Source: Hexactinellida sp. DTS-2022
Taxonomy: Eukaryota > Porifera > Hexactinellida
Reading direction: 5' to 3'
NCBI GenBank assembly: GCA_028753945.1
Contig: JAPNXP010000007.1
Coordinates: forward strand, 4,464,001-4,528,000
Length of the DNA stretch: 64,000 nucleotides
Position 1 is the stretch's first letter. Every line of letters starts with the position of its first letter. The notes under the pieces are model-generated. The model was not told the DNA's origin. It did not search any database and worked only from the letters and a program-made list of their open reading frames with translations. The translations under genes and the position numbers were made by a program. Below are positions 11,821-37,090 of this stretch, in pieces.

Positions 11821-11949
11821 AAAAATCCAAAATTGCAGCCTGCGCCGACAGCATGTTCTTTTGGAGGCACTATAAATAAACAACCAACAAAATATAGTGC
11901 CACCAAAGGAACATGCGTCGGCACAGGCTGCAATTTTGGATTTTTTTTT
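11821..11949. repeat. Hairpin family H, copy 1
   Basis: Inverted arms of about 50 bp (AATCCAAAATTGCAGCCTG ... complement) around a short A-rich loop. An internal GGAGGCACTAT / ATAGTGCCACC pair makes a nearly perfect long stem. Seven copies occur in the window. Confidence 0.9.
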
Positions 11950-12010
11950 TTACTGTGCCGACTATACTATAGTATAGTGGCCCAGTATTGGAATCACTGC
12001 CTTTATTTTT

Positions 12011-13314: not shown

Positions 13315-13445
13315 AAAAAAAATCCAAAATTGCAGCCTGTGCCGACAGCATGTTCCTATGGAGGCACTATCAATAAACCACCACCAAAATATAGTGCCAC
13401 CAAAGGAACATGCGTCGGCACAGGCTGCAATTTTGGATTTTTTTT
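13315..13445. repeat. Hairpin family H, copy 2
   Basis: The same two arms, AATCCAAAATTGCAGCCTG and its complement, around an ATAAACCACCACCAAAAT loop. Confidence 0.9.
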
Positions 13446-14170
13446 ATTATTATTATTATTTCTCCGTAGCAGGTGCCCTGGCCACACCTGTATACATAGA
13501 GGGCTGAAACTTGGCATGTAGATTCGGAGTCGACGTCTAATTTGCACCTGGGGTTACGATTTTGTATTAACAAATTCTTGACACATCTTTAACACCTTTC
13601 AAAATTTGTCTGGTCCATAACTCAAAAAATGTTTTACTAAACCCCAAAATTTTATTTCACATTTGGATTCGCCATAAAATTCTGCGTCTGATGGGAGAAG
13701 AAATTTTTCAATAAAGGGGTCAATTTCTGCCATAAATGGGGGTTGAAATTTCTTTGTTTACTGACACTTCAATTTCAGTAAAGTGTTAAATCTAATTCCA
13801 TTGTTTCAACTTGTAATAATTATATTGATTTAACTTGTTAAATCCTACTCTAGTGATTCAACTTGCGATAATTATATTGATTTAACTTATAAATTCCAGC
13901 TGGCTTCTATTTAATTTTAGTATTACTATACAATTGATTAAATTAAATAATATAATATAAGGAATTTGTTGACTCAACTCAACCAACCATGGATAACATT
14001 GCTAAAATAAATAACTAATAATATAATTTATTATCAATACATAATGAATGAATGGCATTAAACTCAAGATGGTTTATGATAGAAACAAACTTCAAATTTA
14101 TCTCCCGTCCTTGTGGCTCGGATCAATTAACAAATGGATCATGACACCTTGAGGCGTTGATGACTTGGCG
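13446..14170. repeat. Cassette repeat, copy 3 (internally deleted)
   Basis: Starts CTCCGTAGCAGGTGCCCTGG. It matches copies 1 and 2 to about ATGGTTTATGATAGAA, then jumps to the segment just before the hairpin and so lacks about 600 bp of the full cassette. Copy 4 has the same short form. Confidence 0.75.
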
Positions 14171-14298
14171 AAAAAAAATCCAAAATTGCAGATGTGCTGA
14201 CAGCATGTTCTTTTGGAGGCACTATCAATGACCCACCAACAAAATATAGTGCCACCAAAGGAACATGCGTCGGCACAGCTGCAATTTTGGATTTTTTT
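14171..14298. repeat. Hairpin family H, copy 3
   Basis: Same inverted arms as the other copies. It is followed directly by one 35-bp palindrome unit (14297-14350). Confidence 0.88.
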
Positions 14299-14350
14299 AT
14301 TACTGTGCCGACTATACTATAGTATAGTGGCCCAGTATTGGAATCACTGC

Positions 14351-15077
14351 CTTTATTTTTATTTTTTCTCCGTAGACGGTGCCCTGGCCACATCTTTATA
14401 CATAGAGAGCTTAAACTTGGCATGTAGGTGCGATGGGACCGTCTAATTTGCACCTGGGGTTACGATTTTTTATTAACAAATTTTTGACACATCTTTAACA
14501 CCTTTCAAATTTTGTCTGGTCCATAGCTAGAAAAATGTTTTACTAAACCCCCAAATTTTATTTCACATTTGGATCCACCATAAAATTCTGCGTCTGATGG
14601 GAGAAGAAAATTTGTTAAAATTGGTTTAATTTCTGCCATAAATGGGGGTTGAAATTCCTTTGTTTACTCAACACTTCAATTTCAATAAAACTGTGAAATC
14701 TAATTCCATTGTTTCAACTTGTAATAATTATATTGATTTAACTTGTTAAAGCTTTCACTATTGTTTCAACTTGCGATAATTAAATTGATTCAACTTATAA
14801 ATTCCAGCTGGCTTCTATTTAATTCTAGTATTACTATACAATGGATTAAATAAAATAATATAATATAAGGAATTTGTTGACTAAACTCAAATCACCGTGG
14901 ATAACATTGCTAAAATAACTAACTAATAATATAATTCATTATCAATACATAATGAATGAATGGCATTGAACTCTAGATGGTTTATGATAGAAACAAACTT
15001 CAAATTTATCTACCGTTCCTTGTGACTCGGACCAAATAACAAATGCTTCTTCACACCTTGGGCGTTGATGACTTGGC
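14351..15077. repeat. Cassette repeat, copy 4 (internally deleted)
   Basis: Starts TTTTTCTCCGTAGACGGTGC and follows copy 3 closely, including the same shortened right part. Confidence 0.75.
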
Positions 15078-15208
15078 AAAAAAAATCCAAAATTGCAGCC
15101 TGCGCCGACAGCATGTTCCTCTGGAGGCACTATCAATAAACAACACAAAAATAGAGTGCCACCAAAGGAACATGCGTCGGCACAGGGTGCAATTTTGGAT
15201 TTTTTTTT
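15078..15208. repeat. Hairpin family H, copy 4
   Basis: Inverted arms as in the other copies, followed by a short cassette start (15209-15310) that breaks off after CACC/TACCTGGGGTTACG. Confidence 0.88.
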
Positions 15209-15475
15209 CTCCGTAGACGGTGCCCTGGCCACACCTTTATACATTGAGGGCTGAAACTTGGCATGTAGGTGCGGAGTGCCCTTCTAATTTGTACCTGGGG
15301 TTACGATTTATGATCAAATAATTTTAACACTATTTAATCCAATTATGGCTTAGCCAATTAAATTAGAGGGTTGTCCCAGTGCAGATTGGATTAGCAGCTA
15401 GCATCCAATTAGTATAAAAGGATTTTCTATCAATTGTTAGTGTACATATAGAATGCCTAACCGAGGCTGTAATTT

Positions 15476-15580
15476 AATTGGTCGAGAAGTACAAATTAAT
15501 TCTAGCGAAGTATAATTATTAATTCTAGCAAAGTATAAATTGGTCGAGAAGTACAAATTAATTCTAGCGAAGTATAAATT
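15476..15580. repeat. Short tandem repeat, unit about 39 bp
   Basis: The unit ATTGGTCGAGAAGTACAAAT followed by TAATTCTAGCGAAGTATAA occurs about 2.5 times, immediately before hairpin copy 5. Confidence 0.8.
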
Positions 15581-15716
15581 AAAAAAAAAAATCCAAAATT
15601 GCAGCTGTGCCGACAGTATTTTCCTTGGAGGCACTATCAATTACCCAAACGGTATCCACCAATAGATAGTGCCACCAAAGGGAAATACGTCGGCACACCT
15701 ACAATCTTGGATTTTT
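15581..15716. repeat. Hairpin family H, copy 5 (most divergent)
   Basis: Arms are recognisable but altered (for example CAGTATTTTCCTTGG). It is not preceded by a full cassette, so the hairpin may also move or persist on its own. Confidence 0.82.
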
Positions 15717-15743
15717 ACTGTGCCGACTATACTATAGTATAGT

Positions 15744-16063
15744 CAGGGGCGTGCCGTGACCATTTTGAGTGGGGGGGTGTAAATTCTTGGTTTACCGACC
15801 AACATGCATTCTTTCTATCGTGGAGGTAGATAGATAAAATATTTCACAATTTCCCCTGACCCTGCAGTGCTGCAACTTCTAGCGTTACTAACGTTGACTG
15901 CATCGACGACACTAATAAATTATAATTATACATGTGTAAATATAATAATCTGAAAAATTGATTCTAATCGATCGGTTTTACAGACGACACAGGAATTACC
16001 GACCAAATAAGATAAAGTGGGGGGTGTCACACCCCCAACACCCCCCCGCACGGTACGCCCCTG
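15744..16063. mobile_element. hAT-type MITE, 320 bp
   Basis: Ends CAGGGGCGTGCCGTG and CACGGTACGCCCCTG are inverted. The octamer AGTATAGT flanks it at 15736-15743 and 16064-16071. It is inserted in a 35-bp palindrome unit, which it splits cleanly. Confidence 0.9.
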
Positions 16064-16114
16064 AGTATAGTGGCCCAGTATTGGTCTTAGTGCTTTGGTA
16101 TATTATTATTATTA

Positions 16115-16369
16115 TTATTACTGTGCCGACTAAACTATACTATAGTGGCCCAGTATTGATCTTACTGCCTTTATTACTGTGCCGACTATACTATAGTATA
16201 GTGGCCCAGTATTGGAATCACTGCCTTTATTATTACTGTGCCGACTATACTATAGTATAGTGGGCCAGTATTGAAATCACTGCCTTTATTATTACTGTGC
16301 CGACTATACTATAGTATAGTGGCCCAGGATTGGAATCACTGCCTTTATTTTTATTTTTACTGTGCCGAC
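16115..16369. repeat. Tandem 35-bp palindrome units
   Basis: Four consecutive units with spacers CACTGCCTTTATTATT. The last is cut by the MITE at 16370-16836. Confidence 0.88.
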
Positions 16370-16836
16370 CAGGGACGTTGCCAGGATTTTTCACCTAGGG
16401 GGGGCACAGAAATTGCCAGGGGGGGCAAACATTACATTGGTGCTAAATCTAGCAGTTTACGTTACCAAAAACTATGCGATAAAGATGAAGCTTTCTAGTT
16501 TAATGTCCTGCAAAGTTTTAAAATGTTTTGGTTAGTGTAATTCGTTTTAATATATGTGTAGAATTACATTCTAGACGAGCGAGCGAAGCGAGCGAGAAAA
16601 AAATTTGAGGTGTCTAGGGATCTTGACCAATGTACAGGGGAAAATTGGAGCCTCGTACACGTATATGACTCAAATAAATTGGAAAATGTGAACTCATTAA
16701 ATTGAATTCAATAGCATCAATGAATCAGAGAATTAAATAGTTCAATATATTTTACCAGGGGGGGCATTGCCCCGGGGCGAGGATTTCTACCAGGGGGGGC
16801 ATTGCCCCCCTATGCCCCCCCGTGGCGACGTCCCTG
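16370..16836. mobile_element. hAT-type MITE, 467 bp
   Basis: Left end CAGGGACGTTGCCAGG and complemented right end CAGGGACGTCGCCACGG. The target duplication GTGCCGAC lies at 16362-16369 and 16837-16844, inside a palindrome unit. The interior contains runs of G and a GAGCGAGCGAAGCGAGCGAG palindrome. Confidence 0.9.
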
Positions 16837-16959
16837 GTGCCGACTATACTATAGTATAGTGGCCCAGTATTGAAATCACTGCCTTTATTTTTATTTTTAC
16901 TGTGCCGACTATACTATAGTATAGTGGCCCAGTATTGGAATCACTGCCTTTATTATTGT

Positions 16960-17284
16960 TACGAGATGAGGCCACGTACTAGTATCGAAGACTAGGCGCT
17001 CTAGCTGACCCCATCCCGTAAGGATGTTACGTGTGTGGTTTCGTCCCATTGCAGAGACTCATCAGGAGGGTAACCCTCGACCACCATGCGTACTGTCGCA
17101 CCTCTCGCTCCAGCCCGCAGCTCCTGCGAGTGCCGTACTGCCCATGTACTCATAGTCCTAGACTATGGTTACCAGTCGTACTGCCGGCCTGTGAATACTC
17201 ACTTACCTATGAGTCTGCCCGTACTGCCACCTATAGTCTTTCCCAAGGACTATACTCCTGAAGGCTACAGGTGATATCTATAAC
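16960..17284 (-). mobile_element. Dispersed repeat carrying a hammerhead ribozyme (family B, copy 1)
   Basis: It splits an ordinary palindrome-unit spacer: TTTATTATT on the left and ATTATTACTGTGCC on the right, which suggests a short ATTATT duplication. It matches 35998-36268 from GATGAGGCCAC and GACTAGGCGCTC through the ribozyme to CGTACTGCC and CCCAAGGAC. It is non-coding. Ends are approximate. Confidence 0.7.
17035..17084 (-). ncRNA. Hammerhead ribozyme, type III arrangement (family B, copy 1)
   Basis: Minus strand, in order: GTGGT (stem III), C as cleavage-site base, GAGGG-TTA-CCCTC (stem I hairpin), CTGATGAG (core), TCTCTGCAATGGGA (stem II, GTCTC pairing with GGGAC), CGAAA (core), CCAC (stem III return). 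Every conserved core position is present and all three helices close. The geometry (stem III open, stem I closed) is that of type III hammerheads. Predicted cleavage follows the GTC triplet. Confidence 0.9.
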
Positions 17285-17400
17285 ATTATTACTGTGCCGA
17301 CTATACTATAGTATAGTGGCCCAGTTCTAATCTCAGTGCCTTGGTTAGTTATTATTACTGTGCCGACTATACTATAGTATAGTGGCCCAGTATTGGTCTT

Positions 17401-18482
17401 AGTGCTTTGGTTATTATTGGTCCGTAGATCCTCCACAGAACAGAGTTTTAGTAACTAAGAACTGAAATTTTCAGGATATGTGTCTCATGAGTTACAGATG
17501 TGCACCTGGGGTCACGATTTTTTATTACATTTTTTTGGACACATTTTTGCACCTGTTTAATATTAGAAAAAGAACAATAAATTGTGCGAGAATATTCAAT
17601 TTATATGCATTCGATAGAGAATTAAATTTTACACCTTTTCACAGTGCACGAATTTTCAAATTGCGCTTCGTTTGTGCCACAATTGAGTTGCAAGTTTCCT
17701 TTGTTTACTAACACTTCAGTTCAATTGAAGTGTTAAATCGAATTCTATTGTTTCAACTTGTAATAATTATATTGATTCAACTTGTGAGATCGAGTAGGCT
17801 TCTATTTTCTAATTAAACCTAAGATTTTACATTCCACAACAACGACAGATTAAGTGATTATATTTATTTCTGCGAGAATATTCTTGCACTGTTAATAGAC
17901 TGACGTAATTAATTATAATTAATTCAGTCAGTATATGACTTATATAGATGCTTCCAATTTGTGTATTAGGGGTTATCGAGTGTGCGGAATTGAAATTTGA
18001 TTACCAAATTAATTAATTAATTATTTATGACAAAATAATTAACTTAATAATTGTAAGTTGACATTGAAATTGGTGTTATATTATAAATAATATTAATAAT
18101 TATTTATACTAATTAATTAAATATCATAAATCTCAGAATTCAAATAAGATAGAAACAAACTTCCAATTTATCAATTGGTCCTTATGGTACGTGCCACCTA
18201 TACAAGTGGGTATTGACACCTTGAGGTGATGATGACATCGTTAAAAAAATGTGTTTTTACAATTTTGTTAATTCGATATTTATAATGGGTTAGTTGATGT
18301 TGGGTGATGACCCAACACACACATAAAAAATGCTGAGTCATCAGCTATTATATTCTACTGAAACTTGAATATCTCTCAAATGAAGTGAGCTAAATGGAAA
18401 CTTCCACCACTCTAAGGGTCGTAGCCTTCTGAAACACCTTTCTGAAATAATTTAACACCTTCAAAGTGATGATGACTTGGCG
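17401..18482. repeat. Cassette repeat, divergent copy 5
   Basis: Starts with a variant beginning (GGTCCGTAGATCCTCCACAG) but shares CACCTGGGGTCACGATTT, ACAACAACGACAGATTAAG, GGGGTTATCGAGTG and GTTGGGTGATGACCCAAC in the usual order. This copy gives an uninterrupted version of the site where the 12.4-kb element later inserted into copy 6 (17885-17910). Confidence 0.78.
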
Positions 18483-18612
18483 AAAAAAAAATCCAAAATT
18501 GCAGCATGTGCCGACAGCATGTTTCTTTGGAGGCACTATCAATAAACATCCAACAAAATATAGTGCCACCAAAGGAACATGCGTCGGCACAGGCTGCAAT
18601 TTTGGATTTTTT
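18483..18612. repeat. Hairpin family H, copy 6
   Basis: Same inverted arms around ATAAACATCCAACAAAAT. It lies directly between divergent cassettes 5 and 6. Confidence 0.9.
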
Positions 18613-19095
18613 ATCCTTCCGTATCCTCTCTACAGAACAGAGTTTAATTAACTAAAAGCCCAAATTTTCAGGATATGTGTCTCATGGGTTACAGATGTGC
18701 ACCTGGGGTCACGATATTATATCACATTTTTTTGGACACAATTTTACGCCTGTTTATGTTAGAAAAAGCACAATAAATAGTGCGATAATTTTCAATATAT
18801 ATGCATTCGATAGAGAATTAAATTCTACACCTTTTCACAGTGCACGAATTTTCAAATTTTACTTAGTTTGTGCCACAATTGAGTTGCCAGTTTCCTTTGT
18901 TTACTAACACTTCAGTTCAATTGAAAGTGTTAAATCGAATTCCAATCTTTCAACTCGTGATTATTATATTGATTCAACTTGTGAGATCTAGTAGGCTTCT
19001 ATTTCCCAATTGAAAACTAAGATTATATATTTCATAACAACGACAGATTATGTGATTCTATTTACTTCTGCGACAATATTATTGCACTGTTAATA
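18613..19095. repeat. Cassette repeat copy 6, left part
   Basis: Matches 17401-17897 (TCTACAGAACAGAGTTTAAT, CACCTGGGGTCACGAT, TTGCACTGTTAATA) and stops at the 12.4-kb insertion. It resumes at 31531. Confidence 0.8.
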
Positions 19096-19099
19096 TAGG

Positions 19100-19130
19100 A
19101 AACCTCACCCAAACAGGTTAAAGGTACGCA
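19100..19130 (+). repeat. Left terminal inverted repeat
   Basis: 31 bp, the exact complement of 31488-31518. Its inner part reads, complemented, GTACCTTTAACCTGTTTGGG, which differs from the minisatellite unit GTACCATTAACCTGTTTGG at one base. Confidence 0.95.
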
Positions 19131-19241
19131 GGCAAAAATGAATTAAATCAAAGGACAAAATCAATTAGAAAAAATCAAAGCAATTAAAATCAAATTAAAA
19201 TCAAATTAAAATCAAATTAAAGAATCGATTCAAATATTCTG
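19131..19241. other. A-rich spacer between TIR and array
   Basis: Contains four copies of ATTAAAATCAA. No gene. Confidence 0.7.
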
Positions 19242-22200
19242 CGTACCATTAACCTGTTTGGCGTACCATTAACCTGTTTGGCGTACCATTAACCTGTTTG
19301 GTGTACCATTAACCTTTTCGGTGCACCATTAACCTCTTTGGCGTACCATTAACCTCTTTGGTGTACCATTAACCTGTTCGGCGTACCATTAACCTGTTTG
19401 GTGTACCATTAACCTCTTTGGTGTACCATTAACCTCTTTGGTGTACCATTAACCTCTTTGGTGTACCATTAACCTGTTTGGCGTACAATTAACCTCTTCC
19501 GTGTACCATTAACCTTTTCGGTGCACCATTAACCTGTTTGGCGTACAATTAACCTCTTCGATGTACCATTAACCTTTTCGGTGCACCATTAACCTGTTTG
19601 GTGTACCATTAACCTTTTCGGCGTACCATTAACCTCTTTGGCGTACCATTAACCTGTTGGTGTACCATTACCCTTTTCGGCGTACCATTGACCTGTTGGT
19701 GTACCATTAACCTGTTTGGCGTACCATTAACCTCTTTGGTGTACCATTAACCTGTTTGGCGTACAATTAACCTGTTTGGCGTACAATTAACCTCTTCGGT
19801 GTACCATTAACCTCTTCGGCGTACCATTAACCTCTTTGGTGTACCATTAACCTGTTTGGCGTACCATTAACCTCTTCGGTGTACCATTAACCTCTTTGGC
19901 GTACCATTAACCTCTTTGGCGTACCATTAACCTCTTCGGTGTACCATTAACCTGTTTGGCGTACAATTAACCTCTTCGGTGTACCATTAACCTCTTCGGC
20001 GTACCATTAACCTCTTTGGTGTACCATTAACCTGTTTGGCGTACCATTAACCTCTTCGGTGTACCATTAACCTCTTTGGCGTACCATTAACCTCTTCGGT
20101 GTACCATTAACCTGTTTGGTGTACCATTAACCTGTTTGGCGTACCATTAACCTTTTCGGTGCACCATTAACCTGTTTGGTGTACCATTAACCTTTTCGGC
20201 GTACCATTAACCTCTTTGGTGTACCATTAACCTGTTTGGCGTACCATTAACCTGTTTGGCGTACCATTAACCTCTTTGGCGTACCATTAACCTCTTCGGT
20301 GTACCATTAACCTGTTTGGTGTACCATTAACCTGTTTGGCGTACCATTAACCTTTTCGGTGCACCATTAACCTGTTTGGTGTACCATTAACCTCTTTGGC
20401 GTACCATTAACCTCTTCGGTGTACCATTAACCTGTTTGGCGTACAATTAACCTCTTCGGTGTACCATTAACCTCTTCGGCGTACCATTAACCTCTTTGGT
20501 GTACCATTAACCTGTTTGGCGTACCATTAACCTCTTCGGTGTACCATTAACCTCTTTGGCGTACCATTAACCTCTTTGGCGTACCATTAACCTCTTCGGT
20601 GTACCATTAACCTGTTTGGCGTACAATTAACCTCTTCGGTGTACCATTAACCTCTTCGGCGTACCATTAACCTCTTTGGTGTACCATTAACCTGTTTGGC
20701 GTACCATTAACCTCTTCGGTGTACCATTAACCTCTTTGGCGTACCATTAACCTCTTCGGTGTACCATTAACCTGTTTGGTGTACCATTAACCTGTTTGGC
20801 GTACCATTAACCTTTTCGGTGCACCATTAACCTGTTTGGTGTACCATTAACCTTTTCGGCGTACCATTAACCTCTTTGGTGTACCATTAACCTGTTTGGC
20901 GTACCATTAACCTGTTTGGTGTACCATTAACCTCTTTGGCGTACCATTAACCTCTTTGGTGTACCATTAACCTTTTCAGTGTACCATTAACCTCTTTGGT
21001 GTGCCATTAACCTCTTTGGTGTACCATTAACCTCTTTGGTGTACCATTAACCTGTTTGGTGTACCATTAACCTTTTCGGTATACCATTAACCTTTTCAGT
21101 GTACTATTAACCTGTTTGGTGTACCATTAACCTGTTTGGCGTACCATTAACCTTTTCGGTGCACCATTAACCTGTTTGGTGTACCATTAACCTTTTCGGC
21201 GTACCATTAACCTCTTTGGTGTACCATTAACCTGTTTGGCGTACCATTAACCTGTTTGGTGTACCATTAACCTCTTTGGCGTACCATTAACCTCTTTGGT
21301 GTACCATTAACCTTTTCAGTGTACCATTAACCTCTTTGGTGTGCCATTAACCTCTTTGGTGTACCATTAACCTCTTTGGTGTACCATTAACCTGTTTGGT
21401 GTACCATTAACCTTTTCGGTATACCATTAACCTTTTCAGTGTACTATTAACCTGTTTGGTGTACCATTAACCTCTTTGGCGTACCATTAACCTTTTCGGC
21501 GTACCATTAACCTGTTTGGTGTACCATTAACCTGTTGGTGTACCATTAACCTCTTTGGTGTACCATTAACCTCTTTGGTGTACCATTAACCTTTTCAGTG
21601 TACCATTAACCTCTTTGGTGTGCCATTAACCTCTTTGGTGTACCATTAACCTCTTTGGTGTACCATTAACCTTTTCAGTGTACTATTAACCTGTTTGGTG
21701 TACCATTAACCTCTTTGGCGTACCATTAACCTGTTTGGCGTACCATTAACCTCTTTGGTGTACCATTAACCTGTTTGGTGTACCATTAACCTTTTCGGTA
21801 TACCATTAACCTCTTTGGTGTGCCATTAACCTGTTTGGTGTACCATTAACCTCTTTGGCGTACCATTAACCTCTTTGGTGTACCATTAACCTGTTTGGTG
21901 TACCATTAACCTTTTCGGTATACCATTAACCTTTTCAGTGTACTATTAACCTCTTTGGTGTACCATTAACCTCTTTGGTGTACCATTAACCTCTTTGGTG
22001 TACCATTAACCTTTTCAGTGTACCATTAACCTCTTTGGTATGCCATTAACCTGTTTGGTGTACCATTAACCTGTTTGGTGTACCATTAACCTCTTTGGTG
22101 TACCATTAACCTCTTTGGTGTACCATTAACCTGTTTGGTGTACCATTAACCTTTTCGGTATACCATTAACCTTTTCAGTGTACTATTAACCTGTTTGGTG

Positions 22201-23035
22201 TACCATTAACCTCTTTGGCGTACCATTAACCTGTTCGGCGTACCATTAACCTGTTTGGAGTACCATTAACCTGTTGGTGTACCATTAACCTCTTCGGTGT
22301 ACCATTAACCTCTTTGGTGTACCATTAACCTGTTTGGCGTACCATTAACCTGTTTGGTGTACCATTAACCTTTTCGGCGTACCATTAACCTGTTTGGCGT
22401 ACCATTAACCTCTTTGGTGTACCATTAACCTGTTTGGTGTACCATTAACCTGTTGGTGTACCATTAACCTGTTTGGCGTACCATTAACCTCTTTGGCGTA
22501 CCATTAACCTCTTTGGTGTACCATTAACCTTTTCGGCGTACCATTAACCTCTTCGGCGTACCATTAACCTTTTCGGCGTACCATTAACCTGTTTGGTGTA
22601 CCATTAACCTCTTTGGTGTACCATTAACCTGTTTGGCGTACCATTAACCTGTTTGGTGTACCATTAACCTTTTCGGCGTACCATTAACCTGTTTGGCGTA
22701 CCATTAACCTCTTTGGTGTACCATTAACCTGTTTGGTGTACCATTAACCTGTTGGTGTACCATTAACCTGTTTGGCGTACCATTAACCTCTTTGGCGTAC
22801 CATTAACCTCTTTGGTGTACCATTAACCTTTTCGGCGTACCATTAACCTCTTCGGCGTACCATTAACCTTTTCGGCGTACCATTAACCTGTTTGGTGTAC
22901 CATTAACCTGTTTGGCGTACCATTAACCTCTTTTGGCGTACCATTAACCTCTTTGGTGTACCATTAACCTTTTTGGTGTACCATTAACCTTTTTGGTCTA
23001 CCATTAATCTGTTTGGTGTAACATTAACCTGTACA
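19242..23035 (+). repeat. 20-bp minisatellite array 1 (about 190 copies)
   Basis: Unit GTACCATTAACCTSTTYGGY, with variation mainly at two positions (G/C and T/C) and occasional 19-bp units. Larger blocks are themselves repeated: the unit order at 19941-20100 recurs at 20401-20560 and again at 20581-20760. The units point the same way as array 2. There are no spacers, so it is not a CRISPR array. Copies become degenerate at 22990-23150. Confidence 0.97.
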
Positions 23036-23291
23036 ATTTGCCATTAACTTGTTCAGTATATTTTCAACTAGTTTACGTGCCTTACCCTTTTAGGCTTACT
23101 ATTAATTTTTTTGCGTACTATGAACCTGTTTGTCGTACCATTAACATTTTGTTTTATTTAATTTACTTTGTTCTCATTTAATTTGTTTTCAATTTATTCC
23201 AAATTCATTAATATAAATTGTGCTGTTTTTCCTGTCCTTTAGTCTTTTCTCCTTTCTTTCATTTCTGCTCCCGTTTATGCTATATGTTTAC

Positions 23292-24359
23292 CTGTTATAT
23301 AATCCCCTATTTGTTTCAGTGTATGTATTTCCTTTCCTGTTGTTGATTTTTGGTATTCGTAGTAATACCACAACGCCCAGTACCTTCTCCGAAATGTTTC
23401 TTTGCTGTCCATTTTCGCTTTTCCTATCAAATAATCATCTGGATCATGCACGTGCATACCCTGTTTCACCATTGTAGCCAGGTTTGATGCATAGAGCCTG
23501 CTCGTGGTTGCTTTTACTTTAATTTCCTTTTTTATCCATCTCATATACCCTTCTGTATCAAGTACTACGATATCTTCACCATTCTCTGCCTTACTCATTT
23601 CGTCCTTGGCCTTTTCGCTCTCGTGTGGCGTATTTTCATCTGTATCGTATATTAGATCGCGGGTGTCTTTAATTACTTTCTCCTCGTCGACAGGGTATTC
23701 ATACTCTCTTTCGGGCTCGTCATTTTCAGGGTCTGATCCTCCGATGTTTTCTTCCATGTCTAAGTAATTTCTATTGACTATTGAGTCTTCTTCTTCTTCT
23801 GTTATTGTGAGAGTTATCTCAATTGTGTTAAGTTTGGATTTTGCAATAATGCTTTTCCCAACAGAACTTCTTCCCGATATCCCATGTTTCCTCAGAAGAT
23901 GTTGATGGAATCTATGAAAAATGTATGTGATTGATCTATTAGCAAGTTATACATACCTTTTTGTCCTAAGTGAATATTTTATGTTAAGTACACGCTAAAT
24001 CCACTTTTACTTACAATTTACTGTATAAGACGTATTCCGAATTTTCGCATGATTAGTTTACTAAAACTTGAAATGAAAATTAAATAATTTTTAATAATTA
24101 TTGATTTAACTTAATCAACTTACCCTTTTTTCAACACGAGAATGTTGCATTCCTTCCCCTCATTTATGTAGGAACATCTGTAATAAGATCTTTGGGGTTT
24201 GGAGTCCGAAGCAGCGCATTTTATTATTCTCTGACTTAATTTTGCTCTTTCCTGTTGTTCATATGTCGTAGTTTCTCCGTGTACTGTTTCTAAATGGCGC
24301 GATAAACGGCACACGGATATGCCACATATTATGCAAATGCTCTTTGGTCGTGATGCCAT
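23292..24359 (-). CDS. Left-facing recombinase-like gene start (zinc finger + core-binding domain), no catalytic domain seen
   Basis: Two exons are supported: exon 1 24359-24124, identical to exon 1 of the right-facing gene (79 codons; CIICGISVCRLSRHLETVHG zinc-finger-like), and exon 2 23911-23292. The junction signals mirror those of the right-facing gene. The first 48 residues after MEENIGG are shared; then the protein diverges at 23612, where the palindrome ends. The unique part (GYMRWIKKEIKV, TSRLYASNLATMV) resembles the helical core-binding domain of tyrosine recombinases. It ends at a possible splice donor (CAG|GTAAAC, 23291). Beyond lies only minisatellite, so a catalytic exon is either missing or was replaced by the array. 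It is probably not functional as seen. Confidence 0.6.
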
Positions 24360-25439
24360 GTAGGAGTTTTGAGTGTATTTTTAGATGAATTGTGGCAGAG
24401 TTTCTTACATTTATAGTTAAGCATTTGGAACATTAGGTTGTTGTTACCTTCACACCAATGTCTAGCTTAATAGTTACAACTAAATCAGTATTCAAATGAC
24501 ACTGTTGCTACCTGTAGGCTGTGTCATTTGAATACTGATTTAGTAACAGTGTCATTTGAATACTGATTTAGTTGTAACTATTAAGCTAGACATTGGTGTG
24601 AAGGTAACAACAACCTAATGTTCCAAATGCTTAACTATAAATGTAAGAAACTCTGCCACAATTCATCTAAAAATACACTCAAAACTCCTACATGGCATCA
24701 CGACCAAAGAGCATTTGCATAATATGTGGCATATCCGTGTGCCGTTTATCGCGCCATTTAGAAACAGTACACGGAGAAACTACGACATATGAACAACAGG
24801 AAAGAGCAAAATTAAGTCAGAGAATAATAAAATGCGCTGCTTCGGACTCCAAACCCCAAAGATCTTATTACAGATGTTCCTACATAAATGAGGGGAAGGA
24901 ATGCAACATTCTCGTGTTGAAAAAAGGGTAAGTTGATTAAGTTAAATCAATAATTATTAACAATTATTTAATTTTCATTTCAAGTTTTAGTAAACTAATC
25001 ATGCGAAAATTCGGAATACGTCTTATACAGTAAATTGTAAGTAAAAGTGGATTTAGCGTGTACTTAACATAAAATATTCACTTAGGACAAAAAGGTATGT
25101 ATAACTTGCTAATAGATCAATCACATACATTTTTCATAGATTCCATCAACATCTTCTGAGGAAACATGGGATATCGGGAAGAAGTTCTGTTGGGAAAAGC
25201 ATTATTGCAAAATCCAAACTTAACACAATTGAGATAACTCTCACAATAACAGAAGAAGAAGAAGACTCAATAGTCAATAGAAATTACTTAGACATGGAAG
25301 AAAACATCGGAGGATCAGACCCTGAAAATGACGAGCCCGAAAGAGAGTATGAATACCCTGTCGACGAGGAGAAAGTAATTAAAGACACCCGCGATCTAAT
25401 ATACGATACAGATGAAAATACGCCACACGAGAGCGAAAA
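23612..25439. repeat. Near-perfect palindrome, arms about 0.9 kb
   Basis: Positions x and 49051-x are complementary from 23612/25439 inward to about 24510/24541, with at least one mismatch (near 24090). A ~30-bp centre holds a short direct repeat of GTGTCATTTGAATACTG. Each arm carries the same exon 1, intron 1 and start of exon 2. Such low divergence suggests recent duplication or ongoing gene conversion. Confidence 0.95.
24360..24691. promoter_or_regulatory. Shared head-to-head promoter region
   Basis: The 332 bp between the two divergent ATGs is itself palindromic, so both gene starts have the same upstream sequence. I see no decisive promoter motif. The assignment rests on position only. 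Confidence 0.45.
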
Positions 25440-26932
25440 TCCAATCGAAGACATCAATGAGAACGATGTGACTATTTCTTGTGGATTGGAAAATAACCAA
25501 GCCGAAAACATCGATGATATGGAAGAGCCATTACTGAATGTCTCGGTGTATTTTACACCGCCAGAGACGAATTCTACACATATTTTAATGCAAGATTCAT
25601 CAACTCAGACTCAAGAAGGGACTGCAGAATATGAGATCCCCAAAACTGAAGTTCTTGTAGATGATTTTAATAAATGGCTAACGACCATAGATGGAGGATG
25701 TTATAATGAAGATACATCCAAAAAAGCTTCTCTGATTGTTAAAAATATGTTGAATAAGTTGTCACTATTACAAATAATGGACTCTACAATGGTGTGCGAC
25801 TATTTTACTAAAGATAAAACTATGAGCGGAGTATGCGCAGCAAGTTTGAGCGTTTATTTGCGTTACTTCTCTTCCTTCCTCTTTTATTTTCACGACCTAA
25901 ACAGAAACTACTTTCCGTATGAAAAATACAAAGAGCTGGATCAAAAAATTGCAAGGTAACTATACAATTATTTGAATTTTTAGTTTCCTATTATTCGAAT
26001 AAGCGCCCGGCGCGTATTTTTTCGTGGGCCAAATTAATCACTAAATCTTTTTGAAAATCGAAAAAATATTTGTAACTTAATTAATATTAGTCTGAAAATT
26101 ATGAATATAACTAAAACAATACCAGAATGTTAACTCGTTATTTGTCCCCAAATAAAGATATAATGTAAATAATAATAGGTGGCATACTAGCTTGAAGAAG
26201 AAGTCTTTAAGAGAAGGCATGGGAAAGAGACGCATCATCGAGCATGCAACCAAGAACAATATGGTCTGTATACAGACATATTTAACATCCAATATCAGGA
26301 CAGACCTTCTAAAAGGAATCATAAATTGTCACTCAACTACTCTCCTAAACAGCAACGACTATTATCAATTTCGCGCCGCATTAATAGGGGAAGTTATTCT
26401 GAGAAACTCGCAAAGAGCAGGAGTGGCAATAGGAATGAGAACTTCAGAAGTTTATTCGCAAAATTTGGAGGAAGTCTTAAAAATTGTTGTACATAACCAT
26501 AAAACGGGGAAGATTAAACCTGCTGTACTATTCATGAAAGACATTGCTAAACAAGCGATGCTAAATTTCAAGGAAGTAATTCTACCAAAGGTATCTTGTG
26601 AAGAGTCTTAAGACCATTATTTCCTCTCTTATAACGGAAAAATAATTACACACTCGGGTGTACAGTCCAGCTTGAATATATTGGCTAAATTGATCGGAAG
26701 CCCAGACAAAATCACAGCAACAGGATCGAGAAAGGCTGCAGCAACCTTCATTGCGACTACAAATCCAAACAAGACACAAATAGTTGCAGATTTTATGCAA
26801 CATCAACACCAAACCGCGGAGAAATACTATCGACAATTAGGAGGCGGCGATCATTTAATCAAAGCGTATGAAGAAATTGGAAAATTGAGTGAATTAGAAT
26901 CAAGTTCTGCAGCTTATTTTAAGCATTATTAA
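24692..26932 (+). CDS. Zinc-finger tyrosine recombinase of a Crypton-like transposon (spliced)
   Basis: Three exons are supported: 24692-24927, 25140-25955 and 26179-26932. Introns begin GTAAGT and GTAACT and end ATAG and ATAATAG, and the frame is kept across both joins. The N-terminus has two zinc-finger-like motifs (CIIC...H...H; CSYINEGKEC then, across intron 1, FHQHLLRKH). An acidic linker and a helical core-binding domain (FNKWL...) follow. The catalytic domain shows R in SQRAGV (26414), R in GSRKAAAT (26729), H in DFMQH (26801) and the nucleophile Y in AEKYYR (26828), nine residues after that H as in Crypton-type recombinases. One in-frame TAA lies at 26609-26611 in exon 3, so this copy may be inactive. 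Related enzymes cut and rejoin DNA during transposition. Confidence 0.75.
25990..26030. repeat. Fragment of the CGAATAAGCGCC MITE family in intron 2
   Basis: TTATTCGAATAAGCGCCC matches the ends of the MITEs at 39877-40139 and 40738-41005. Only one end is seen here. Confidence 0.55.
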
Positions 26933-27690
26933 TCTGGTATTAACTTATTCAATATAGAATTGGCTATTATTCACACCACAAGGCAGAATTGCCGGTTAAT
27001 TATTACGCTAAATTGGTACAAACATAAAAATATAATTTTGGGAAAAATTTGTAAAATTGCGAAATATTTTAGTCAGAATTATAATTTGCATAAGTTCATT
27101 GGAAACTGTCGTACCCGGAATTACCTCGATAAAACGGTGTCTGAACACAAAATGCGTTTTATAATACATTCTGAAACGGCTAGTGAATTAGAACTTCATA
27201 CAAGATTTGGTAACACAAATAATCTGAATAAACCGATAAATTAGAAAAGTCAAGTTAGGGAAATTTTTTTATACTGTACGTACTTTCAGGAAACAAGGTT
27301 ATAGTATTGTTATTTAGAATGAGGAAAGAAGAAATTAAAAAGAGACAAAGGAAAATCGAAGATCAAATCCGAATAGAGAAAGTTTGTCAGAAATTTGAAA
27401 AATTACAAATAAAGAATGTAGAAGAAGATGAAGATATTTGTAAGGAATTTGAAAATTTACGAATAGAAGAGTAAGGAGAAAATGATTGTAGAAGAAAAGA
27501 ATAAGTGAAAGGAAAGTGGAGGAAATTACAGAAAGGATCCAAATAGAGTTAATAACGTAGAGTCGGTAGGCAACATGCAAATCATTAACGAGTGTATCAT
27601 TAAACAATGTAGTGTAGCATTTACCCGAATAATGGAGGGTAGAGATAAGAAAATTAGGCGTTGTAATAAAAAATTTGATCCAATGTGAAC
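26933..27690. other. Element 3' region, with a small purine-rich frame
   Basis: Follows the recombinase stop. An ATG frame at 27319-27474 (51 residues, highly charged, rich in K and E) is open, but there is no homology or context to support it as a gene. Another frame at 26960-27244 is equally unsupported. Confidence 0.4.
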
Positions 27691-27691
27691 T

Positions 27692-30600
27692 GTTTGGCCT
27701 GCCATTAACCTACTGGACCATTGTTTGGCGTACCATTAACCTCTTTGGAGTACCATTAACCTGTTAGGTGTACCATTAACCTGTTTGGCGTACCATTAAC
27801 CTCTTTGGTGTACCATAAACCTCTTCGGCGTACCATTAACCTCTTCGGTGTACCATTAACCTGTTGGTGTACCATTAACCTCTTCGGCGTACCATTAACC
27901 TCTTTGGTGTACCATTAACCTGTTTGGCGTACCATTAACCTCTTTGGCGTACCATTAACCTCTTTGGCGTACCATTAACCTCTTCGGCGTACCATTAACC
28001 TCTTTGGTGTACCATTAACCTGTTTGGTGTACCATTAACCTCTTCGGCGTACCATTAACCTCTTTGGTGTACCATTAACCTGTTTGGCGTACCATTAACC
28101 TCTTTGGCGTACCATTAACCTCTTTGGCGTACCATTAACCTGTTTGGTGTACCATTAACCTGTTGGCGTACCATTAACCTGTTTGGTGTACCATTAACCT
28201 GTTGGTGTACCATTAACCTCTTCGGTGTACCATTAAACTCTTCGGCGTACCATTAACCTCTTCGGCGTACCATTAACCTCTTTGGTGTACCATTAACCTC
28301 TTTGGTGTACCATTAACCTCTTCGGCGTACCATTAACCTCTTCGGTGTACCATTAACCTGTTGGTGTACCATTAACCTCTTCGGCGTACCATTAACCTCT
28401 TTGGTGTACCATTAACCTGTTTGGCGTACCATTAACCTCTTTGGCGTACCATTAACCTCTTTGGCGTACCATTAACCTCTTCGGCGTACCATTAACCTCT
28501 TTGGTGTACCATTAACCTGTTTGGTGTACCATTAACCTCTTCGGCGTACCATTAACCTCTTTGGTGTACCATTAACCTGTTTGGCGTACCATTAACCTCT
28601 TTGGCGTACCATTAACCTCTTTGGCGTACCATTAACCTGTTTGGTGTACCATTAACCTGTTGGCGTACCATTAACCTGTTTGGTGTACCATTAACCTGTT
28701 GGTGTACCATTAACCTCTTCGGTGTACCATTAAACTCTTCGGCGTACCATTAACCTCTTCGGCGTACCATTAACCTCTTTGGTGTACCATTAACCTCTTT
28801 GGTGTACCATTAACCTCTTCGGCGTACCATTAACCTCTTCGGCGTACCATTAACCTCTTCGGCGTACCATTAACCTCTTTGGCGTACCATTAACCTCTTT
28901 GGCGTACCATTAACCTGTTTGGTGTACCATTAACCTGTTGGCGTACCATTAACCTGTTTGGTGTACCATTAACCTGTTGGTGTACCATTAACCTCTTCGG
29001 TGTACCATTAAACTCTTCGGCGTACCATTAACCTCTTTGGTGTACCATTAACCTCTTTGGTGTACCATTAACCTCTTCGGCGTACCATTAACCTCTTTGG
29101 TGTACCATTAACCTCTTCGGCGTACCATTAACCTCTTCGGCGTACCATTAACCTCTTTGGTGTACCATTAACCTGTTTGGTGTACCATTAACCTGTTTGG
29201 TGTACCATTAACCTGTTTGGCGTACCATTAACCTCTTTGGTGTACCATTAACCTCTTCGGTGTACCATTAACCTCTTCGGCGTACCATTAACCTCTTTGG
29301 TGTACCATTAACCTGTTTGGTGTACCATTAACCTGTTTGGTGTACCATTAACCTCTTTGGCGTACCATTAACCTCTTTGGTGTACCATTAACCTCTTCGG
29401 TGTACCATTAACCTCTTTGGTGTACCATTAACCTCTTTGGTGTACCATTAACCTCTTTGGCGTACCATTAACCTCTTCGGTGTACCATTAACCTCTTTGG
29501 AGTACCATTAACCTCTTTGGAGTACCATTAACCTCTTCGGTGTACCATTACCCTCTTCGGCGTACCATTAACCTGTTTGGTGTACCATTAACCTGTTGGT
29601 GTACCATTAACCTCTTCGGTGTACCATTAACCTGTTTGGCGTACCATTAACCTCTTTGGTGTACCATTAACCTGTTTGGTGTACCATTAACCTGTTGGCG
29701 TACCATTAACCTCTTCGGCGTACCATTAACCTCTTTGGTGTACCATTAACCTGTTTGGTGTACCATTAACCTGTTTGGTGTACCATTAACCTCTTTGGCG
29801 TACCATTAACCTCTTTGGTGTACCATTAACCTCTTCGGTGTACCATTAACCTCTTTGGTGTACCATTAACCTCTTTGGTGTACCATTAACCTCTTTGGCG
29901 TACCATTAACCTCTTCGGTGTACCATTAACCTCTTTGGAGTACCATTAACCTCTTTGGAGTACCATTAACCTCTTCGGTGTACCATTACCCTCTTCGGCG
30001 TACCATTAACCTGTTTGGTGTACCATTAACCTGTTGGTGTACCATTAACCTCTTCGGTGTACCATTAACCTGTTTGGCGTACCATTAACCTCTTTGGTGT
30101 ACCATTAACCTGTTTGGTGTACCATTAACCTGTTGGCGTACCATTAACCTGTTTGGTGTACCATTAACCTGTTTGGCGTACCATTAACCTGTTTGGTGTA
30201 CCATTAACCTGTTGGTGTACCATTAACCTCTTCGGTGTACCATTAACCTGTTTGGCGTACCATTAACCTCTTTGGTGTACCATTAACCTGTTTGGTGTAC
30301 CATTAACCTGTTGGCGTACCATTAACCTGTTTGGTGTACCATTAACCTGTTTGGCGTACCATTAACCTCTTTGGCGTACCATTAACCTCTTCGGCGTACC
30401 ATTAACCTCTTCGGCGTACCATTAACCTCTTTGGTGTACCATTAACCTGTTTGGTGTACCATTAACCTGTTTGGTGTACCATTAACCTCTTTGGCGTACC
30501 ATTAACCTCTTTGGTGTACCATTAACCTCTTCGGTGTACCATTAACCTCTTCGGTGTACCATTAACCTCTTTGGAGTACCATTAACCTCTTCGGTGTACC

Positions 30601-30912
30601 ATTAACCTCTTTGGAGTACCATTAACCTCTTTGGTGTACCATTAACCTGTTGGTGTACCATTAACCTGTTTGGAGTACCATTACCCTCTTTGGTGTACCA
30701 TTAACCTGTTGGTGTACCATTAACCTGTTTGGAGTACCATTAACCTCTTTGGAGTACCATTAACCTGTTTGGTGTACCATTAACCTGTTTGGTTTACCAT
30801 TAATCTTATCGGCTTACCATTAACCTGTTCGGTGTACCATTAACCAGTTTGGTTCGGTGTACGATTAACCTGTTTGGTGTGCCATTAACCTGTTTGGTGT
30901 ACCATTAACCTC
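27692..30912 (+). repeat. 20-bp minisatellite array 2 (about 160 copies)
   Basis: Same unit and same orientation as array 1. Blocks of about 490 bp are repeated nearly exactly (27860-28350 and 28349-28838), a higher-order structure typical of unequal exchange. The units GGAGTACC and the 19-bp CTGTTGGTG variant are commoner here than in array 1. Confidence 0.97.
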
Positions 30913-30918
30913 ACCACA

Positions 30919-31332
30919 CACGATGCAAATTTGTTGCATGCAACAAGGTAACATCACGGTACAACAATGTGCATGCAACACAATTTCGTGCAACATTGTT
31001 GCATGCAACATTTACTTTAGAGCGACAATGTTGCATGGAAATTACTCAAATACAAATGGAATAAATATTATTTTAAATCATTCTAGGTGGCTTGATTAAT
31101 GGTACTGAGAAAGTGAGCAGTAAATTAAATAGGTACACTAGAAAGTCATGAACTTGTGAATTCTTCAATTGTTTTGAGAAGGTGAAAAATTCAAACGAAA
31201 ATAATCTGAAAAACATGTACTGAATTTCCATATTTGCGTGCAACAAAGTTACACGAAAATTGAACATTTTGCATGCAAAACAACATTCACGGTGCAACAT
31301 TTCAACATACACGATGCAACTTTGTTGCATCG
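30919..31332. mobile_element. MITE-like insert with GATGCAAC/GTTGCATC ends
   Basis: Interrupts the end of array 2. Both borders carry ACGATGCAA-TTTGTTGCAT palindromes, and TTGCATGCAAC motifs recur inside. Related sequence lies at 1750-1910. After it a few degenerate minisatellite units remain (31340-31400). Confidence 0.65.
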
Positions 31333-31487
31333 TATTTGGTAGGCTTTAACCTCTTCGGCGTACCATTAACCTTTTCGGCATACCCTTAACTCAGCATTCA
31401 GTGTAGCATTAACATCCTTGAGTTTTAATATTTAAGACTACTTATTCTTGCATAATTCCTAATTTAACTAGTCCATTCAAATTCTTA

Positions 31488-31518
31488 TGCGTACCTTTAA
31501 CCTGTTTGGGTGAGGTTT
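31488..31518 (-). repeat. Right terminal inverted repeat
   Basis: 31 bp, the exact complement of 19100-19130. Read on the plus strand it contains GTACCTTTAACCTGTTTGGG, the likely founder of the minisatellite unit. Confidence 0.95.
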
Positions 31519-31530
31519 ACAGTAGTAATA

Positions 31531-31955
31531 CTGACGTAATTAAATATAATTAATTCAGTCAGTATATGCCTTAGTCTTGGTCTTATATAGATGCTTCCAA
31601 TTTGTTTATTAGGGGTTATCGAGTGTGCGGAATTATATTTGACGGCGAAATTAATTAATTAATTATTTATGACAAAATAATTTAATTTAATAATTGTAAG
31701 TTGACTTTGAAATTGGTGTTATATTATAAATTATATTAATAATATTAATAATTATTTATACTAATTAATTAAATATCATATTATTGCTAAAATAATTAAC
31801 TAATAATATAATTTATTATCAATCTATAATAATGAATGGCATTAAACTCTAGATGGTTTATGATAGAAACAAACTTCAAATATATCTACCGTTCCTTGTG
31901 ATTCGGACCAATTAACAAATGGTTCTTGACACCTTGAGGCGTTGATGACTTGGCG
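31531..31955. repeat. Cassette repeat copy 6, right part
   Basis: Continues exactly where 19095 stopped (CTGACGTAATTAA ... GGGGTTATCGAGTGTGCGG), matching 17899-18130. It then changes to the short form seen in copies 3 and 4 (ATGGTTTATGATAGAAACAA). Confidence 0.8.
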
Positions 31956-32084
31956 GAAAAAAATCCAAAATTGCAGCCTGCGCCGACAGCATGTTCCTTT
32001 GGAGGCACTATCAATAGACCACCAACAAAATAAAGTGCCACCAACGAAACATGCGTCGGCACAGGCTGCAATTTTGGATTTTTT
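31956..32084. repeat. Hairpin family H, copy 7
   Basis: Same ~50-bp inverted arms, closing the interrupted cassette copy 6. Confidence 0.9.
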
Positions 32085-32196
32085 ATTGTTCCTTCAATGT
32101 ACTGTATCTGGAACAATATGAGACTTCCTGCAACAATACATGTTACGTATAGTTGGATTCAATGGAGGTTTGTAGGCCCCAGTACAGACATAAGGC

Positions 32197-36268: not shown

Positions 36269-36475
36269 ATTGAGATCAATTTCCCAAACCATTTGACAGA
36301 AATATTTATCTGAGAGTGCTAGAAATGGGGTTTGAGGGCCTCCATGTCGCAAAAATTTCCCCTGCTTTTCTCCAGGCTTTAAAAATCCCACGAAAGACTA
36401 TCCCATGTTGGACAGTCTGCCTAGATTGTATTCGTGTGCGTTCACAAAAATTCACATGAGTGTTTTCAACATTCA

Positions 36476-36598
36476 TGTGAGGCTATTACCGAGTGTTCTA
36501 CTAACAACAACTGTGAGCATTTATGTACAAACACAGTTGGTTCCTATATTTGTTCCTGTAACTCTGGATTTACTCTATATTCTGATATGTCATTCTGT
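36476..36598 (+). CDS. EGF-like exon (calcium-binding type), copy 1
   Basis: Codes for 41 residues with six cysteines in EGF order (C-EAITE-C-STNNN-C-EHL-C-TNTVGSYI-C-S-C-NSGFTL ... C). The AITEC start and TNTVGSYICSC segment are those of calcium-binding EGF modules of extracellular proteins. The surrounding sequence was not resolved into a complete gene: no signal peptide or neighbouring domain is clear on this strand. A second near-identical copy follows 242 bp later. Confidence 0.65.
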
Positions 36599-36717
36599 GT
36601 CTCAAGAATCAGTCAGTTGACAGCTCCTATATTTCTTGCTCTCTATCTCTCATCTTGCAAACCTCATTTCTATGATTTGTCATATGGGATTAATCACATG
36701 AGTGTTTTCAACACTCA

Positions 36718-36840
36718 TGTGAGGCTATTACCGAGTGTTCTACTAACAACAACTGTGAGCATTTATGTACAAACACAGTTGGTTCCTATATCTGTTCCTG
36801 TAACTCTGGATTTACTCTACATTCTGATATGTCATTCTGT
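36718..36840 (+). CDS. EGF-like exon, copy 2 (tandem duplicate)
   Basis: Almost identical to 36476-36598, with the same flanks (ATGAGTGTTTTCAACA before, CTCAAGAATCAGTCAGTTGA after). A 242-bp unit has therefore been duplicated in tandem. Both copies retain the cysteine pattern. Whether either is spliced into a mature transcript cannot be told from the sequence. Confidence 0.65.
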
Positions 36841-37090
36841 GTCTCAAGAATCAGTCAGTTGACAGCTCCTATATTTCTTGCTCTCTATCTCTCATCTTGC
36901 AAATCTCATTCCTATGATTTGTCGTATGGGATTAACTGTATTTATTCTTATATATTATTCGAATCTAATTCTTAGTTTTCATTATTCTCTCTCTCTCTCT
37001 ATGTTTTTCTTTATTCTTTCTATGCACACCGATATTTCATATATTTTCCTATTTGTTACTTATTTTATCTTTTGTTATTCTGTGATTTAA

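What the first reader, a model, noticed from the sequence alone, without database searches (positions are those of the whole stretch)
19096..31525. A 12.4-kb Crypton-like element whose terminal repeat appears to have seeded its own giant minisatellites
Seen: 31-bp perfect TIRs, TAATA on both sides, and a continuous host repeat either side that is intact at 17885-17910. Also seen: two arrays of a 20-bp unit that differs from TIR positions GTACCTTTAACCTGTTTGG at a single base (T to A). Known: Cryptons are tyrosine-recombinase DNA transposons and are generally described without long TIRs. Inferred: the TIR-internal 20-mer amplified inside the element, making about 7 kb of its 12.4 kb. The arrays might act as arrays of recombinase binding sites. 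I know of no described element with this combination.
Basis: partly seen in the sequence, partly recalled or inferred. Interest (0 to 1): 0.93.

Follow-up and report, generated by a model that had tools for sequence, protein, structure and literature searches.

The report
Recombinase transposon carrying end-derived minisatellites
An animal genome carries a 12.4-kb jumping-gene insertion that encodes a broken tyrosine-recombinase-like protein, has matching inverted ends, and is more than half made of about 350 tandem copies of a 20-base word that also sits in those ends; the parts are known kinds, the combination seems unusual, and only one copy was seen.

Summary
Perfect 31-bp inverted repeats (19100-19130, 31488-31518) bound the stretch. 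Two same-direction arrays of a 20-bp unit fill 6,977 of 12,419 bp; the nearest unit variant shares 20 of 21 bases with the terminal repeat. Joined flanks match uninterrupted host copies. Correction: TAATA stands on both sides, but three host copies favour a 3-bp ATA duplication (inferred; none of them reads ATA there). Between the arrays a near-perfect 1.8-kb palindrome holds the starts of two divergent genes with the same zinc-finger-like N-terminus. One runs into a tyrosine-recombinase-like domain (XerC model E 7e-5, far below its cut-off) with one in-frame stop and HxxR changed to TxxR; the other is an intact 290-codon frame with an unknown tail. No DDE or RT domain was seen in the 16 of 36 frames scanned. 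It is not filed as a Crypton: animal Cryptons are reported without terminal repeats. Arrays seeded by terminal repeats (Tetris) and arrays as binding sites (Galileo) have precedents. Best reading: a tyrosine-recombinase DNA transposon whose ends and arrays share a word, perhaps a binding site. The host genome is not held, so no second copy could be sought there.

The parts
19095..19097 (.). left copy of the likely 3-bp duplicated target ATA (the literal TAATA is 19091-19095)
   Evidence: joined-flank scoring against 3 host copies; inferred
19100..19130 (+). left 31-bp perfect terminal inverted repeat
19243..23030 (+). left array of the 20-bp unit, about 190 copies, same direction as the right array; diverged units continue to about 23150
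23275..24359 (-). left gene: exon 1 24359-24124, exon 2 23911-23275, GT-AG intron; 290 aa without internal stop; N-terminus as the right gene, then a 111-codon tail of its own
   Evidence: spliced translation; open frames; tail frame open in 6 of 20000 shuffles
23612..25439 (.). near-perfect palindrome: arms 23612-24510 and 24541-25439 (2 mismatches in 899), 30 bp between
24692..26932 (+). right gene: exons 24692-24927, 25140-25955, 26179-26932, GT-AG introns; zinc-finger-like N-terminus, acidic stretch, tyrosine-recombinase-like C-terminus
   Evidence: gene model; Pfam PF00589 E 0.0012; NCBIfam XerC E 7.3e-5; all below curated cut-offs
26609..26611 (+). single in-frame TAA inside the recombinase exon
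27724..30912 (+). right array of the 20-bp unit, about 160 copies; decayed units at about 31346-31425
31488..31518 (-). right 31-bp perfect terminal inverted repeat
31528..31530 (.). right copy of the likely target ATA (the literal TAATA is 31526-31530)
   Evidence: inferred
31528..31565 (.). 38-bp imperfect host palindrome (arms of 19, 84% complementary) whose outermost 3 bases are the ATA at the insertion point

Best explanation
It is one insertion of a DNA transposon that encodes a tyrosine-recombinase-like protein. I infer that an intact form of the recombinase pairs the two ends through the inverted repeats, cuts the element out as a circle, and puts it into a short AT-rich target. The inverted repeat may be composite: an outer 11 bp (AAACCTCACCC) next to the crossover, and an inner 20-bp word bound by the N-terminal zinc-finger-like part, in the manner of the core and arm sites of lambda integrase (recalled). 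That inner word, with one base changed, was amplified inside the element into two arrays, which then grew by unequal exchange. Shown: the insertion, the ends, the arrays, the kinship of end word and unit, the gene models, weak recombinase similarity, and the stop codon. Inferred: the circle route, which protein part binds which word, the direction of seeding, and any use of the arrays.
For: Insertion with an empty-site match. Perfect inverted ends. The only recognised enzyme domain is a tyrosine recombinase: 4 of 4 NCBIfam hits to the read-through catalytic exon at E up to 1 are recombinases, best E 7.3e-5; Pfam PF00589 E 0.0012 for the spliced protein and 0.00012 for the exon; phrog_216 integrase E 0.0031. 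In NCBIfam, 0 of 9 shuffles hit a recombinase. In a MAFFT alignment with XerC and XerD two arginines, a histidine and the tyrosine line up. 10 further frames gave no Pfam hit at E up to 0.1. The bases outside the perfect repeats are unequal (2 left, 9 right if the target is ATA), which I judge easier for a recombinase site than for a DDE element cut at its repeat ends. Terminal repeat and unit share 20 of 21 bases. Exact repeats within an array reach 494 and 528 bp but only 79 bp between arrays, as local unequal exchange would give.
Against: All recombinase matches lie below curated cut-offs where there are any. The best PHROG hit is a family of unknown function (phrog_10184, E 0.00099). Scanned as two pieces without read-through, the exon gave no recombinase hit in Pfam. 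One shuffle reached an unrelated NCBIfam family at E 0.002, so E-values near 0.001 are not strong. A profile of XerC and XerD alone gave 3.6 bits, and hhalign a probability of 0.6% over 49 columns. The HxxR histidine is T, and the first arginine could also be that of a nearby GMRTSEV (sequence). A 3-bp duplication fits several DDE superfamilies (recalled). Two single-sequence models had pLDDT 33 and 38 and were useless. One copy only. Binding of the N-terminus to the word is untested, and its zinc-finger match is weak (E 0.0035, below cut-off).
Confidence: 0.5

Rival explanations
1. A DDE cut-and-paste transposon without a transposase of its own in this copy, mobilised in trans, that carries a recombinase gene as cargo or helper, somewhat like Tec elements or the Mariner-Crypton fusion MarCry.
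For: Perfect 31-bp inverted repeats and a likely 3-bp duplication; Tec1/Tec2 and MarCry-1_FO combine DDE transposase and recombinase (PMC3212892). The recombinase here has a stop and lacks the HxxR histidine.
Against: No DDE domain in the 16 of 36 frames of 50 aa or more that were scanned whole or in part; unequal extra bases outside the inverted repeats.
Confidence: 0.32
2. On the arrays only, and compatible with either mover: they are a neutral by-product. Slippage and unequal exchange amplified a fragment of the terminal repeat (or the repeat was copied from an array), and the arrays bind nothing.
For: Array edges are diverged and long identical blocks lie inside, as in ordinary minisatellites. 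Variation sits mainly at positions 14, 17 and 20, which a few old variants reshuffled by exchange would give.
Against: Nothing here excludes it.
Confidence: 0.5
3. Chance nesting: a recombinase gene block inserted into an older host minisatellite, with unrelated inverted ends.
For: The gene block lies between two arrays of the same direction.
Against: The perfect inverted repeats and the empty-site match lie outside the arrays; the ends contain the array word; no 19-bp match to the terminal-repeat word with up to 3 mismatches lies outside the element in the window.
Confidence: 0.07
4. Assembly artefact: the palindrome or the arrays join pieces that are not contiguous in the genome.
For: A 1.8-kb near-perfect palindrome and 7 kb of short repeats are places where assemblies fail (general knowledge).
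Against: Both genes read on into different tails at the palindrome borders. Both outer flanks match the empty host site.
Confidence: 0.08

Closest known systems
Crypton, animal groups CryptonA and CryptonI (Kojima and Jurka 2011, PMC3212892: passages and section 8 seen)
   Same: DNA element whose only recognised enzyme is a tyrosine recombinase; movement as a circle proposed for Cryptons; animal host
   Different: Animal Cryptons reported without terminal repeats; others have short direct repeats of 4-6 bp. Here 31-bp inverted repeats, a likely 3-bp duplication, TxxR for HxxR, large arrays and a divergent second gene
Tetris, foldback transposon of Drosophila virilis (PMC4079207: abstract, outline and section 19 seen)
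   Same: Internal tandem repeats that share a stretch with the outer terminal repeat, thought by the authors to derive from it, and that grew into satellite-like arrays
   Different: About 220-bp repeats inside the inverted repeats, 37 bp shared at about 80%; apparently non-autonomous. Here a 20-bp unit shared almost whole, in direct arrays between short inverted ends, beside a recombinase-like gene
Galileo, P-element superfamily (PMC3688188: abstract and outline seen)
   Same: Tandem repeats near the ends in which the authors identified further binding sites of the element's own THAP domain
   Different: Long foldback-like inverted repeats and a P-type transposase; its proximal site was footprinted, whereas binding here is only proposed
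MarCry-1_FO and Tec1/Tec2 (as described in PMC3212892)
   Same: Elements that carry a tyrosine recombinase gene; MarCry-1_FO has 16-bp inverted repeats
   Different: They also encode a DDE transposase; none found here
MITE of Porphyromonas gingivalis with a minisatellite (PMC4596501: search listing only)
   Same: A minisatellite inside an inverted-repeat element
   Different: Bacterial and small; relation of its unit to the ends not looked up

Membership tests
Crypton | encodes a tyrosine recombinase | tested here: met
   weak but consistent hits in three libraries, all below curated cut-offs where given; shuffles gave no recombinase
Crypton | catalytic tetrad R-H-R-Y | tested here: not met
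   R, R and Y line up with XerC/XerD, the HxxR histidine is T
Crypton | no terminal inverted repeats | tested here: not met
   31-bp perfect inverted repeats; feature from PMC3212892
Crypton | short direct repeats of 4-6 bp at the ends (fungi, oomycetes, diatom) or none (animals) | tested here: inconclusive
   3-bp ATA preferred over 5-bp TAATA, one insertion only
Crypton | recombinase falls in a Crypton clade | not testable with these tools
   no relatives found in viral or prokaryote collections; no eukaryote collection at hand
Crypton | circular intermediate | not testable with these tools
   needs DNA
DDE inverted-repeat transposon | DDE transposase gene | tested here: not met
   no such Pfam hit; 16 of 36 frames of 50 aa or more scanned whole or in part; a trans-mobilised element would lack it too
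DDE inverted-repeat transposon | inverted repeats at both exact termini with a fixed-length duplication | tested here: inconclusive
   2 and 9 extra bases outside the repeats if the duplication is ATA, 4 and 7 if TAATA
Foldback-type element (Tetris, Galileo) | long inverted repeats built of tandem units | tested here: not met
   both arrays run in the same direction
DIRS/Ngaro-type retrotransposon | reverse transcriptase | tested here: not met
   no RT hit in the frames scanned, 16 of 36

The most novel reading that the evidence does not exclude
A separate kind of animal tyrosine-recombinase transposon with composite ends: an outer core site plus an inner arm site, the arm site multiplied about 350-fold inside the element and bound by a zinc-finger domain that a catalytic protein and a recombinase-less sister protein share. 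Both are made from one palindromic promoter block, so the sister protein, whose frame is intact, could act as a built-in competitor or co-binder.
Probability: 0.17. Interest if true: 0.82.

Novelty: new variant of a known kind. Interest (0 to 1): 0.52.

Why it matters
If other copies bear it out, this would be an animal tyrosine-recombinase element with true inverted ends, which blurs the line between Cryptons and inverted-repeat transposons, and a clear case of a word in a transposon's end being the same as the unit of a large minisatellite inside it. It would make testable whether such arrays serve the recombinase or are only debris. The near-perfect palindrome with two divergent genes that share one N-terminus is an unusual arrangement in its own right.

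Tried and rejected
Second copies: no whole genome is held for the window. The unit pattern in viral contigs and genome contigs, a pattern of terminal-repeat word or unit followed by G in viral contigs, and the first part of the recombinase exon in both collections gave no relatives; these collections hold viruses and prokaryotes, so this says little. Solved structures: 0 hits for the recombinase region at E up to 10. Single-sequence structure predictions gave pLDDT 33 and 38; no fold search was run on them. The idea that the left gene's tail is a recombinase core-binding domain found no support: no alignment to the matching part of the right gene and no such family; the right gene's own presumed core-binding part also had no family hit. 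A coding role for the arrays was rejected: the longest frames lying wholly within them have 52 codons. The pattern of variation in the unit (positions 14, 17, 20) was considered as a binding footprint and set aside, because a few old variants reshuffled by exchange explain it.

Papers: PMC3212892 passages and section 8; PMC4079207 abstract, outline and section 19; PMC3688188 abstract and outline; PMC6947457, PMC8268682 and PMC4316633 passages; everything else only as search listings. That I found no report of this combination rests on seven searches of an open-licence library, of which I saw listings only: 20 of 36 papers listed; 20 of 170; 25 of 52; 15 of 15; 11 of 11; 15 of 68; 14 of 14. Repbase and subscription papers were not searched.

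Full report
What was checked. The window is animal DNA to judge by its genes: a BLTP1-type N-terminus (Pfam E 5.8e-53 for the first 1,201 residues), Rad1, cytochrome c heme lyase, EGF-type and TRAF-type zinc-finger genes. The species was not determined. The host genome is not held, so all conclusions rest on one locus.

Ends and target. The 31-bp inverted repeat is perfect, 19100-19130 and 31488-31518, and no other match of its 30-base pattern with up to 3 mismatches lies in the window. Joining the flanks gives a sequence that aligns across the junction to the host repeat at 17421-18128 (88% over 737 columns), and over shorter parts to copies near 11.2 kb (74% over 336) and 12.7 kb (83% over 109). 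At the site the three host copies read TTAATAGACTGAC, TTAATGTACTGAC and TTAATGTACTGAC. I scored 475 cut pairs against them. The best four, all equivalent, leave one ATA; leaving one TAATA scores lower with each of the three. So the duplication is most simply 3 bp. None of the three copies has ATA there, so the old target is inferred, and a 5-bp duplication with a 2-bp host loss remains possible. Outside the perfect repeats lie GG on the left and ACAGTAGTA on the right. The ATA is also the outer edge of a 38-bp imperfect host palindrome, 31528-31565.

Arrays. TRF gives 189.6 and 160.0 copies; my own parse gives 193 and 164 units, of which 185 and 144 are exactly 20 bp. Both arrays run in the same direction, that of the right terminal repeat. 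Position 6 is A in 329 of 329 of these, T in both terminal repeats. Most variation is at positions 14, 17 and 20. Nine variants occur in both arrays and cover 71% of the left and 86% of the right 20-bp units; each array also has variants of its own. Identical blocks reach 494 bp (left) and 528 bp (right) within arrays but 79 bp between them. Borders towards the genes and towards the right end hold decayed units. I read this as one founding word, an early doubling or split, and separate later growth.

Genes. The block between the arrays holds a palindrome with arms of 899 bp that differ at two positions, 30 bp apart. Each arm contains the start of a gene: exon 1, a GT-AG intron, and the start of exon 2, with a C and H pattern that looks like two C2H2 fingers, the second completed across the splice, then an acidic stretch. 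Pfam sees only a weak finger match (zf-C2H2_12, E 0.0035, below cut-off), so the finger assignment rests mostly on that pattern. Beyond the palindrome the genes differ. The right one runs through a second GT-AG intron into an exon of about 250 codons. Read through its one in-frame TAA, this exon matches tyrosine-recombinase models weakly; scanned as two pieces it gave no recombinase hit in Pfam. Nine shuffles gave none in NCBIfam, although one hit an unrelated family at E 0.002. In an alignment with E. coli XerC and XerD two arginines, a histidine and the tyrosine line up, but the HxxR histidine is a threonine; a profile of those two proteins alone gave only 3.6 bits and hhalign 0.6% probability. 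The left gene is an intact frame of 290 codons. Its last 111 codons are its own, a frame open in 6 of 20000 shuffles, with no recognised family and no alignment to the matching part of the right gene.

How it most likely works. The recombinase is the only enzyme seen, so I take an intact form of it as the mover, by a circle, as proposed for Cryptons (PMC3212892, passages). The same passage gives recombinase sites as two inverted repeats of 11-13 bp with 6-8 bp between. Here the circle would hold two 31-bp arms with 14 bp between if ATA is the crossover, 16 if TAATA, so the fit is loose: the outer 11 bp could be the core arm and the inner 20-bp word a further site. The N-terminal domain is the natural candidate to bind that word, which would make the arrays excess binding sites. 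This is inference. That the arrays do nothing is at least as likely as that they are used.

Comparison. Animal Cryptons are described as having no terminal repeats (PMC3212892 section 8). For Tetris, terminal-repeat sequence is thought to have become internal tandem repeats, and its authors make the same seeding argument. In Galileo, further binding sites of the element's own protein were identified in internal tandem repeats (abstract). An oyster table lists one satellite as Crypton-like, and a beetle paper reports 70% similarity of part of a satellite to a Crypton (passages); neither passage shows the layout seen here. Hence: a new variant of a known kind. The whole combination did not show in the listings of seven library searches.

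Limits. One copy, a broken gene, recombinase matches below cut-offs, no relatives, no usable structure. A DDE element with recombinase cargo remains a serious rival.

Noticed in passing
30913-31340: A stretch of about 430 bp with imperfect inverted ends (27 nt, 78% complementary) and many TTGCATGCAAC-like words follows the right array; array-like units resume after it, so it may be a small nested element.
   Followed up: partly
10600-19090 and 31528-32100: A cluster of diverged direct copies of a host repeat spaced about 1.2-1.5 kb, into one copy of which the element inserted.
   Followed up: partly
51268-62256: A 3,662-aa BLTP1-like protein in one uninterrupted open frame of 11 kb, unusual for this gene in animals as far as I recall.
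   Followed up: no
36452-36935: Two tandem 242-bp copies (97% matches) in an EGF-type gene; 242 is not a multiple of three.
   Followed up: no
19182-19221: A short perfect 11-bp tandem run (AATTAAAATCA, 3.6 copies) between the left terminal repeat and the left array.
   Followed up: no
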